Below are positions 51,343-53,557 of a stretch of DNA of 64,000 nucleotides, in pieces. Under the pieces are notes generated by a model. It saw nothing but the letters and a program-made list of their open reading frames with translations. It was not told the DNA's origin and ran no database searches. Both the position numbers and the translations under genes were made by a program. Numbering within the stretch: position 1 is the stretch's first letter; each line of letters begins with the position of its first letter. The DNA is taken from NCBI RefSeq assembly GCF_000230735.2, contig NC_019962.1, positions 2,728,001 through 2,792,000 of the forward strand, given 5' to 3'. This DNA is from Natrinema pellirubrum DSM 15624 (GTDB taxonomy: Archaea; Halobacteriota; Halobacteria; Halobacteriales; Natrialbaceae).

Positions 51343-51705
51343 TCAGCGTTCGACGCGCTCGAGTAGCTGCGGCGACACCCCCTCCGGTGCCCGCTCGTCG
51401 CCCATCCCGGTCGTTACGATCAGGCGCATCCCGCGGCGGACGCTCATATCGGTCTCGTGGACCTGGTCCTCGGGGAGCAAGAGGAGCCGGCCGGCGGTCG
51501 GGTTCGGACTGTTCGGCAGAAAGACGTTGTAGACGTCACTGCCGGCGATCGCCTCGGCCTCCCGGGGTCCCTCACCGGTGACGAGCCCGATCATGTAGAC
51601 GCCCTCGCGGGGGTACTCGACCAACACGACGCTCTCGTAGCTGGTCTTGCGCTCGACGAGCGAGTCGGCGACCTGCCGGACGCTGCCGTAGATCGTACTG
51701 ACCAG
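51343..51705 (-). pseudogene. DUF502 gene, 3' part (interrupted by TnpB element)
   Basis: About 120 codons encoding the soluble C-terminal part of a DUF502 membrane protein: LVSTIYGSVRQVADSL, VVLVEYPREGVYMIGLVTGE, NVFLPNSPNPTAGRLLLLPEDQV and a final LLERVER. The N-terminal part is at 53264-53557, and the two join in frame (VVP to LVST) once the 1558-bp insertion is removed, giving 218 aa, the normal size. It has no own start near the junction and is probably not made as a functional protein. Confidence 0.85.
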
Positions 51706-51850
51706 TGACATCCTCCCCGCCGTGAACGGCGGGGCTTCCCACACGGTGGGAATCCGGCTTGGCAGGTTTCAGTCCGAGTACGCCGAGAGCGTCATCTGCG
51801 AGGATTTCTCGCTCGTCTCCCGGTGGACTGTGGCGCTGTCACAGGCGCTC
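51706..51850 (-). ncRNA. Predicted omega (reRNA) guide scaffold
   Basis: TnpB systems process an RNA from the 3' end of tnpB through the right end into the flank. Here the two hairpins between 51715 and 51752 would form the scaffold, and the first bases of the DUF502 3' part (from 51705 downward, CTGGTCAGTACGATCTACGG) would be the guide. The upstream limit, inside the end of tnpB, is approximate. Confidence 0.4.
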
Positions 51851-52992
51851 CTATCCCGAGGTGAGTCATCGCGTTCCGGTTCCCAAGGAACGCTCTCTCC
51901 CCACGGGTTAGCGCGACCGGCGATGTTCGCCGCCGCGTTAATATCTGCTTGGAACTCAGAAACGTGGCAGTCGTCGTGCGGACACACGAACTCCGCTTGC
52001 TCTTTCCGCCGACCGAGCCGGTTGCAGGCGTAGCAGGTTTGTGAAGTGTACGCCGCGTTGATGTACTCGACGCGAATGCCTGCCTCGGTCGCTTTGTCCT
52101 CGATTCGACCCTGTAGCCGGGCGAACGCCCACGCGTGAAGCCGCCGGTTCATGAACTTCCCGCAGTCCAACCGCTCTCGGATGTACGACAAGTCTTCGAG
52201 GACGATAACGGGATTCTCGAACTGTTGGGCGTATTCGACGGCCTGCCGAGACGCCTTCTCGACAACATCCGTCAGGGAGTTTTGGTAGTGATCGAATCGT
52301 TCGTCCACGCGCCACTCGGCGGCGTCTCTCGACTGTAGCCGCCGGAGCGTGGTGAACATTTCTTTGCGAAGGTGTCGCGCTCGACTGCCGCTGACGAGCA
52401 TCGGCTTCCGTGGCACGTCGCGTTTGAGGGCACAGCCCGTAATCAACGCGCTCTCGCCTACGTCGAAACCGATGTACGTCGGGTCGTCCGAATCGGTCGG
52501 TTCTTCGACCGGGTACTCGGCGGTGACGTGCAACTCCCACGACATGCGGTGTCGCTGTAGCCGCAACTCGCCCACCGTCGCATCTTCGGAGAGCAGGTCG
52601 AACCATAGGGATTCTTGCTCCGGGTTGATACGGAGTGGAATCCAGAAGTTCGTCCCGCGTCCGGGTTGCGGGGCCTGCCACACGAAGCCGTGTTCGCGCT
52701 CGTCGGAGTAGTCGAACTTCGCGGCCCGATTGACGAGTCGAAGCGGATGCTCGTCGTCCAACTCCTCGGCGTTGTACGTCGAACGGAGTTTCGGGACGTA
52801 GAATTTGAGCGCGTCTTTTGCTTGGTACGGCAGGTCGTAGGGCGTCACAATGTCGTTGACGGCTGACATTGTGTCAGCCTTGTTGTCGAAGGCGTCGTGG
52901 AGCGCTTCGCGGTAAGTGTCTAAGAGTCGCTGTAGGCGTTGCTCTTTGCCCGTGGTGGGCGTGACGAGCGTGGCCTGTAGCGTCTTCGTCAC
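51769..52992 (-). CDS. tnpB: RNA-guided endonuclease TnpB
   Basis: A 407-aa IS1341-type TnpB. The RuvC residues are complete: Asp177 (IGFDVGE), Glu266 (VIVLEDL) and Asp350 (FQADINAAAN). The zinc finger CYAC..CPHDDC lies near 312-335. A helical N-terminal domain precedes them. GTG 52992 (TKTLQATLVTP) is chosen; the frame continuing to 53127 is non-coding. It should cut DNA matching the reRNA guide and thereby help retain the element. The gene looks intact. Confidence 0.9.
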   Translation of the reverse strand: MTKTLQATLVTPTTGKEQRLQRLLDTYREALHDAFDNKADTMSAVNDIVTPYDLPYQAKDALKFYVPKLRSTYNAEELDDEHPLRLVNRAAKFDYSDEREHGFVWQAPQPGRGTNFWIPLRINPEQESLWFDLLSEDATVGELRLQRHRMSWELHVTAEYPVEEPTDSDDPTYIGFDVGESALITGCALKRDVPRKPMLVSGSRARHLRKEMFTTLRRLQSRDAAEWRVDERFDHYQNSLTDVVEKASRQAVEYAQQFENPVIVLEDLSYIRERLDCGKFMNRRLHAWAFARLQGRIEDKATEAGIRVEYINAAYTSQTCYACNRLGRRKEQAEFVCPHDDCHVSEFQADINAAANIAGRANPWGESVPWEPERDDSPRDRSACDSATVHRETSEKSSQMTLSAYSD

Positions 52993-53058
52993 CGTCTCGG
53001 ACACACCCGTAGATAGAACGTAGACAAAGTTAAGTGTACCGGAGTGCGAGAATGATTT

Positions 53059-53196
53059 ATGCCACACATCAACTTCGAGGTAGACGAAGAACAGTACGAG
53101 TCGCTGAAAGAGACGAAGAAGCGCCACGGGCTGACGTGGAAGGGTATGCTACTCCACGCACAACGGGAGTTGGATTCCGGCCCGGCCACCGAGTAG
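53059..53196 (+). CDS. Ribbon-helix-helix-like mini-protein, divergent from tnpB
   Basis: A 45-aa frame inside the left part of the TnpB element, on the opposite strand from tnpB. The pattern HINFEVDEEQYESL then KKRHGLTWKGMLLHAQREL looks like the strand and two helices of a ribbon-helix-helix DNA-binding domain. Its start lies 66 bp from the tnpB GTG, so the two would share a control region. The function is inferred. Confidence 0.55.
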   Translation: MPHINFEVDEEQYESLKETKKRHGLTWKGMLLHAQRELDSGPATE

Positions 53197-53263
53197 CCGT
53201 TGGTCAGCACCGTGTCGCATTCCCTCCCGCCCTAAAGGGCGGGATTCCCTGCTTGTAGAAAGA

Positions 53264-53557
53264 TGGGACGACGTTGACGAGTCGCCCGACGTTCCCGAAC
53301 AGGTGTCGGCCGACGCTCAACTGGGCGAGAAAGCCGAGAACGACGGCCGCAACAGCGATCAGTATCACGGCAAACGCCTGCGCGACGACCGTCACGTTGC
53401 CGGTGTACTGGGCCAAACCCGCGGTGCGTACGAGCGGATCCACGAACTGTAACGACCAGTTGACGAGGAACCGCAGGACGTACAGCGTGACGACCAGTGG
53501 CGCGACCAGAATGAGTCCGGCAACGAAGCTTTGCCTGACAGTGTCCCAGACGTTCAT
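53264..53557 (-). pseudogene. DUF502 gene, 5' part (interrupted by TnpB element)
   Basis: 98 codons with two membrane helices (SFVAGLILVAPLVVTLYVLRFLV and AQAFAVILIAVAAVVLGFLAQL), ending GRLVNVVP where the element starts. Reading on into the element adds 19 foreign codons before a stop at 53204. A truncated two-helix protein could be made, but the soluble domain is cut off. Confidence 0.85.

What the first reader, a model, noticed from the sequence alone, without database searches (positions are those of the whole stretch)
53059..53196. Divergent ribbon-helix-helix-like mini-gene inside the TnpB element
A 45-aa protein on the opposite strand starts 66 bp from the tnpB start. A built-in repressor that controls TnpB dosage would be a notable addition to TnpB elements.
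Basis: partly seen in the sequence, partly recalled or inferred. Interest (0 to 1): 0.6.

Follow-up and report, generated by a model that had tools for sequence, protein, structure and literature searches.

The report
Mini DNA-binding partner of TnpB elements
The tiny 45-amino-acid gene is real: it belongs to a conserved family of small DNA-binding proteins that salt-loving archaea carry back-to-back with the RNA-guided nuclease gene tnpB, in the place where other such elements carry their transposase, and it probably controls the nuclease's promoter.

Summary
Observation confirmed and extended. The 45-aa ORF (53059-53196, +) lies inside a clean TnpB insertion (51705-53262) that splits a DUF502 gene, 66 bp from the divergent tnpB start. 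It is a conserved family confined, in what I searched, to haloarchaea. In a GTDB scan, 69 of 71 single-domain members with enough flank face a tnpB; start-to-start gaps are 53-85 bp. The frame is under purifying selection, and AlphaFold gives strand-helix-helix (pLDDT 91), i.e. ribbon-helix-helix (RHH). The family partners two distant TnpB clades.

New: among 55 TnpBs at least 65% identical to this one, the same slot holds this RHH (30), a second RHH-like type (4), a third (8), or a Y1 TnpA transposase (12); never both TnpA and a mini-protein, and only one has neither. On the TnpB tree the slot gene changes many times.

The shared promoter region carries a direct repeat with 11-bp spacing in 10 of 22 non-redundant loci, against about 1 of 22 at other spacings.

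Best reading: an element-borne autoregulator of the divergent RHH/tnpB promoters. Repression, and its effect on TnpB dosage, are inferred. Known in kind (NCBI's DUF2080 'transposase-associated protein'); this RHH partner and its swap with TnpA I found described nowhere.

The parts
51705..53262 (-). whole TnpB element, 1558 bp, no target-site duplication, inserted 3' of CCAT in a DUF502 gene
   Evidence: 99.4% identical second copy in L006 with the same ends; empty site in L141 with 98%/93% identical flanks; CCAT flank recurs in most related copies
53059..53196 (+). mini-gene, 45-aa ribbon-helix-helix protein (RHH type A)
   Evidence: conserved family, AF2 helices 10-23 and 27-40, pLDDT 90.8, purifying selection
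51769..52992 (-). tnpB, RNA-guided nuclease; RuvC motif residues (FDVGES, VLEDLSY, DINAAANI) and zinc-finger CYACN present
   Evidence: NCBIfam NF040570 121.7 bits, cut-off 100; Pfam PF07282; motifs
52993..53058 (.). 66-bp shared intergenic region with divergent promoters
   Evidence: gap 66-85 bp in TnpB clade 1, 53-57 bp in clade 2
53009..53026 (+). putative operator: direct repeat GTAGATA gaac GTAGACA, 11-bp spacing
   Evidence: pair kept in relatives with a joint G-to-T change in both halves (L011, L012, L135)
53030..53034 (.). TTAAG, candidate TATA-like core about 25 bp from the mini-gene start; may serve both directions
   Evidence: read from sequence; inference
53226..53243 (.). left-end subterminal hairpin CCCGCCCTAAAGGGCGGG
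   Evidence: sequence
51705..51830 (-). conserved structured 3' end (omega-RNA scaffold), ending ...GAGGATGTCAC at the element edge
   Evidence: consensus fold with 6 pairs kept through changes on both sides, 4 sequences; weak Rfam matches HgcC and sot0042, below gathering score
51685..51704 (-). flank read as omega-RNA guide: TGGTCAGTACGATCTACGGC, equals the empty target site
   Evidence: guide role is inference from known TnpB biology
51343..51704 (-). 3' part of the interrupted DUF502 gene
   Evidence: Pfam PF04367 E=2e-20
53263..53557 (-). 5' part of the interrupted DUF502 gene
   Evidence: empty-site alignment

Best explanation
The mini-gene encodes a ribbon-helix-helix DNA-binding protein that belongs to the TnpB element. 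Shown: conserved family, divergent tnpB partner, fixed spacing, confident RHH-type model, purifying selection, and an 11-bp direct repeat in the shared promoter region of many elements. Inferred: RHH dimers sit side by side on the two half-sites (about one helical turn apart) over the overlapping divergent promoters and switch down their own gene and tnpB (and so the omega-RNA cut from tnpB mRNA), keeping nuclease dosage low once the element is established. It occupies the slot where sister elements carry TnpA, so it marks elements that have given up their own transposase; they keep hairpin-type ends and probably move, if at all, by a TnpA acting in trans.
For: Partner: 69 of 71 single-domain homologues with enough flank face a tnpB. 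Two distant TnpB clades share it. Spacing 66-85 bp or 53-57 bp. Fold: AF2 pLDDT 90.8; most Foldseek hits are RHH proteins such as NikR, RelB, DinJ, VapB and AmrZ, although E>1; a two-domain relative is modelled as strand-strand-helices, i.e. a single-chain RHH dimer. Operator: 11-bp direct repeats in 10/22 non-redundant loci, 0 of 500 shuffles as high, other spacings about 1/22, control upstream regions 3/65; loci at most 85% similar to the discovery set give 6/16 against about 1/16. In most of 13 loci the half-site pair lies only in this region. Putative DNA-contact positions 3 and 5 of the strand vary between subfamilies while the core (K20, G24, T26, W27, G29) is invariant.
Against: No binding or expression data. 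At the strictest redundancy cut the repeat signal weakens (5/15; 1 of 500 shuffles as high; 4 of 100 when the best spacing is free), and the 7 most distant new loci show none at 6/7. About half of the elements lack a clear 11-bp direct repeat; some show an inverted one instead. The operator lies on the tnpB side here but on the RHH side in most others. Sequence profiles do not place the family in Pfam RHH_1 above cut-off. Activation rather than repression is possible.
Confidence: 0.62

Rival explanations
1. The RHH protein is a mobility factor that stands in for TnpA: it binds the element (ends or joint) and helps a TnpA acting in trans, or host replication, to excise or insert the element.
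For: Strict exclusion with TnpA and repeated swaps of the slot gene; the genome has 29 TnpB places but one Y1 TnpA; the element moved recently.
Against: No catalytic residues are possible in 45 aa; the repeat pair sits at the promoter and not at the ends; position is kept relative to the tnpB start, not to the ends.
Confidence: 0.13
2. The RHH protein acts on TnpB itself, like an antitoxin that binds and holds the nuclease, and also represses the pair.
For: RHH antitoxins commonly both repress and neutralise (general knowledge; see also PMC10440598); divergent pairing with one protein family.
Against: Antitoxins usually have a separate toxin-binding tail; this protein is all RHH plus about 5 residues. 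It partners two very distant TnpB clades, which argues against one specific protein interface.
Confidence: 0.1
3. An activator or growth-phase switch: the RHH protein turns tnpB on, or sets timing, rather than holding it down.
For: The repeat lies at different places relative to the two starts in different subfamilies.
Against: Most repeats lie over the expected start site of the RHH gene, a repressing position.
Confidence: 0.1
4. A passenger or decaying host gene with no role in the element.
For: RHH genes are common in haloarchaea; related two-domain proteins live without TnpB.
Against: Purifying selection, fixed spacing, many genera, two TnpB clades, exclusion with TnpA.
Confidence: 0.05

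Closest known systems
DUF2080 family transposase-associated protein (NCBIfam NF033496, Pfam PF09853)
   Same: about 50-aa protein directly upstream of tnpB in haloarchaeal elements, in the same slot (L131, L057, L192, L200)
   Different: different family by sequence (no match to the mini-gene); same-strand rather than divergent
Ribbon-helix-helix (MetJ/Arc/CopG) repressors and RHH antitoxins (NikR, RelB, DinJ, AmrZ)
   Same: predicted strand-helix-helix fold; repeated half-sites in the promoter
   Different: 45 aa with no second domain; no Pfam match above cut-off; partner is TnpB, not a toxin
IS200/IS605 elements, IS1341 group (tnpB without tnpA)
   Same: TnpB, hairpin-bearing left end, no target duplication, structured RNA at the tnpB 3' end
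   Different: the 'tnpB-only' element has a second gene in the tnpA slot. The haloarchaeal survey PMC3119063 reports many tnpB without tnpA; the passages I read mention no such gene
TldR, RNA-guided transcription factors derived from TnpB (PMC13418256)
   Same: TnpB lineage tied to gene regulation
   Different: there TnpB itself is the regulator (abstract; loss of cleavage is from my own knowledge); here the TnpB motif residues are intact and a separate protein would regulate it

Membership tests
Ribbon-helix-helix superfamily | strand, helix, turn with Gly, helix in about 45 residues | tested here: met
   AF2 helices 10-23 and 27-40; invariant G24 and T26 between the helices
Ribbon-helix-helix superfamily | dimer through an antiparallel ribbon | tested here: inconclusive
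   two-domain relative modelled with two long strands and two helix pairs; no dimer of the window protein could be modelled
Ribbon-helix-helix superfamily | profile match (Pfam RHH_1, PF01402) | tested here: not met
   4 of 47 members, best E 0.099; the family is too short and diverged, so it is not filed under RHH_1
Ribbon-helix-helix superfamily | sequence-specific DNA binding | not testable with these tools
   only indirect: 11-bp repeats
IS200/IS605 (IS1341 group) TnpB element | TnpB with RuvC and zinc-finger domains | tested here: met
IS200/IS605 (IS1341 group) TnpB element | no target duplication, insertion 3' of a short motif | tested here: met
IS200/IS605 (IS1341 group) TnpB element | no tnpA in the element | tested here: met
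   only Y1 in the genome is at G000:C3:252265, far away
DUF2080 transposase-associated protein | match to NF033496 / PF09853 | tested here: not met
Type II toxin-antitoxin | toxin gene beside the antitoxin | tested here: not met
   neighbour is tnpB, divergent; no toxin family found beside it

The most novel reading that the evidence does not exclude
A distinct class of two-gene TnpB elements in haloarchaea: several unrelated-looking mini DNA-binding proteins (three RHH-like types and DUF2080) have repeatedly exchanged places with TnpA in the same slot, turning a transposase-nuclease element into a regulator-nuclease element in which the small protein sets TnpB/omega-RNA dosage.
Probability: 0.5. 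Interest if true: 0.75.

Novelty: new variant of a known kind. Interest (0 to 1): 0.62.

Why it matters
TnpB elements without a transposase are very common in haloarchaea, and how they persist is an old puzzle (noted in PMC3119063). Finding a dedicated, conserved DNA-binding partner in the transposase's slot, with a candidate operator, gives the puzzle a direct test: does the partner hold the RNA-guided nuclease at a tolerable level? It also adds a transcription-level control to elements whose regulation has so far been discussed mainly at the RNA level (PMC12558985, PMC10134880).

Tried and rejected
Single-sequence search for the best inverted or direct repeat against shuffles: not significant; only the spacing-by-spacing comparison across loci showed the 11-bp signal. 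Inverted repeats at fixed distance: no clear peak. Sequence search of solved structures: nothing. Pfam, NCBIfam, PADLOC: no match for the mini-gene; PHROGs: only insignificant matches. Foldseek on the two-domain relative: uninformative. Phage records: no match; viral contigs: 3 loci. My first TnpB query was in the wrong frame and was redone. Considered and dropped: TnpA remnant (no Y1 match), ORF by chance (selection, conservation), toxin-antitoxin pair.

Full report
WHAT IS THERE. At 51705-53262 a 1558-bp element sits in a DUF502 gene. Its ends are fixed by a 99.4% identical copy at another place in N. pallidum and by the uninterrupted gene in relatives. The empty site reads CCAT|TGGTCAG on the tnpB strand; most related copies also follow CCAT. 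There is no target duplication. The element holds tnpB (51769-52992, -), a structured 3' RNA region ending at the element edge, a left-end hairpin (53226-53243), and, between tnpB and the left end, the mini-gene 53059-53196 (+). So the mini-gene is inside the mobile unit.

IS THE MINI-GENE REAL. Yes. Homologues occur in 50 of 119 relatives; a phylum-wide sample of 295 genomes found it in 24, all in the same order. In the GTDB scan every hit but one is titled as an archaeon; the exception is a 'Thermomicrobiaceae' MAG contig (L262) whose sequence is close to Natronococcus proteins, probably mis-binned. Public plasmid records call the gene 'hypothetical protein' or leave it unannotated. Nei-Gojobori dN/dS among six close relatives is about 0.04-0.36 in this frame; the other two frames of the same strand give dN at or above dS in nearly every pair. 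Invariant residues are K20, G24, T26, W27, G29.

PARTNER AND SPACING. Of 83 loci from genome and viral collections, 69 have a divergent TnpB, 4 end too soon, and 10 have none; 8 of those 10 are two-domain relatives. Among single-domain members with enough flank that is 69 of 71. The start-to-start gap is 66-85 bp for the TnpB clade of the window and 53-57 bp for a second, distant TnpB clade that uses the same family.

THE SLOT. Taking the 55 TnpBs that are at least 65% identical to the window's, reach the N-terminus and were classified (one further such hit, G078:C1:4773, was left out of the script list), the upstream slot holds: type A RHH (this family) 30; type B, divergent, 41-50 aa (consensus near ...KQITIREDQVEWIDENHINLSSLVR...) 4; type C, same strand, 44-53 aa, sometimes overlapping tnpB by a few bases (MRTEIDMERG..LHERVKEYARDNGI...) 8; Y1 TnpA 12; neither 1 (my tally). 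TnpA and a mini-protein were never found together. In the wider set of 100 TnpB loci the counts are A 36, TnpA 34, C 14, none 10, B 4, DUF2080 2, again with no double; that set was partly chosen through type A, so the proportions are biased. On the TnpB tree the slot labels need at least 18 changes, and starred branches alone force at least 3 for A, 5 for TnpA and 4 for C. TnpBs on very short branches differ in partner (L041 and L042 with TnpA, L043 and L044 with type C). DUF2080, which NCBI already names 'transposase-associated protein', sits in the same slot in other TnpBs. Types B and C look RHH-like by eye; type C touches RHH_10 only at E=0.16, so their fold is inference. True TnpB-only elements also exist (10 of the 100 have no partner that I could recognise).

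FOLD. AlphaFold2 on 45 sequences: pLDDT 90.8, helices 10-23 and 27-40 after an N-terminal extended stretch. Foldseek hits are mostly RHH proteins (NikR, RelB, DinJ, VapB, MazE-mt1, AmrZ, HicB), but E-values exceed 1, as expected for 45 residues. A TnpB-less two-domain relative is modelled as two strands followed by two helix pairs, a single-chain version of an RHH dimer.

CANDIDATE OPERATOR. In the 60 bp before the mini-gene start, 7-mers repeated directly with at most one mismatch were counted for each spacing. At 11 bp: 10 of 22 loci below 75% similarity; the other 15 spacings average about 1. Shuffles reached this in 0 of 500; with free choice of spacing 0 of 100. At the strictest cut (15 loci) it is 5, matched by 1 of 500, or 4 of 100 with free spacing. 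Control regions upstream of other tnpB genes: 3 of 65. Loci at most 85% similar to the discovery set: 6 of 16 against about 1 of 16; the 7 most distant show none at this threshold. The repeat sequence differs by subfamily (GTAGA, TTAGA, GTAAC, CTAAC, ATCTATT, TGGGTAT). In the window it is GTAGATA-gaac-GTAGACA at 53009-53026, 16 bp from the tnpB start and 32 bp from the mini-gene start. In relatives L011, L012 and L135 both halves changed together to TTAGA. Where I looked, the pair recurs only here and not at the element ends, although single short half-sites occur elsewhere in L001, L007 and L009. Protein positions 3 and 5, which should face DNA in an RHH strand, vary strongly, as expected for diverging specificity.

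MECHANISM. Shown: conserved partner, orientation, spacing, fold prediction, repeats. Inferred: RHH dimers on both half-sites cover the overlapping promoters and lower expression of both genes. Since omega-RNA is cut from tnpB mRNA (PMC12558985 and references there), one repressor would set both nuclease and guide. The guide, if read as usual from the 3' flank, matches the empty DUF502 site exactly, so active TnpB would cut chromosomes that lost the element; keeping its dose low is a plausible need. Exclusion with TnpA suggests the regulator suits elements that no longer make their own transposase. The genome has 29 TnpB places and one TnpA.

LITERATURE. Nine full-text searches of the open library found no paper describing an RHH or other mini-regulator in TnpB elements. 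Subscription papers and preprints not held there were not searched, so novelty is provisional.

Noticed in passing
L035-L038, L115: Second RHH-like mini-protein (type B) in the same slot, divergent in four TnpB elements and same-strand in one.
   Followed up: partly
L043-L045, L048, L050, L051, L110, L122, L163, L164, L169, L172-L174: Third mini-protein (type C), mostly same-strand directly before tnpB and often overlapping it by a few bases; divergent in L122.
   Followed up: partly
L057 (G006:C1:2032000-2042900): Four TnpB elements within 11 kb, three with type A RHH and one with DUF2080.
   Followed up: no
L069, L074, L100, L250, L262, L270: Two-domain relatives (about 100 aa) away from TnpB, which look like single-chain RHH dimers with unknown targets.
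   Followed up: partly
L262: A 'Thermomicrobiaceae bacterium' MAG contig carries a protein almost identical to Natronococcus proteins; probably mis-binned.
   Followed up: no
L081 and L089 (N. pallidum): Overlapping partial duplication of the type A gene with a frame break, beside one broken and one intact tnpB.
   Followed up: no
window 51685-51704 and L141: The likely omega-RNA guide of this element equals the empty DUF502 site in a relative.
   Followed up: partly
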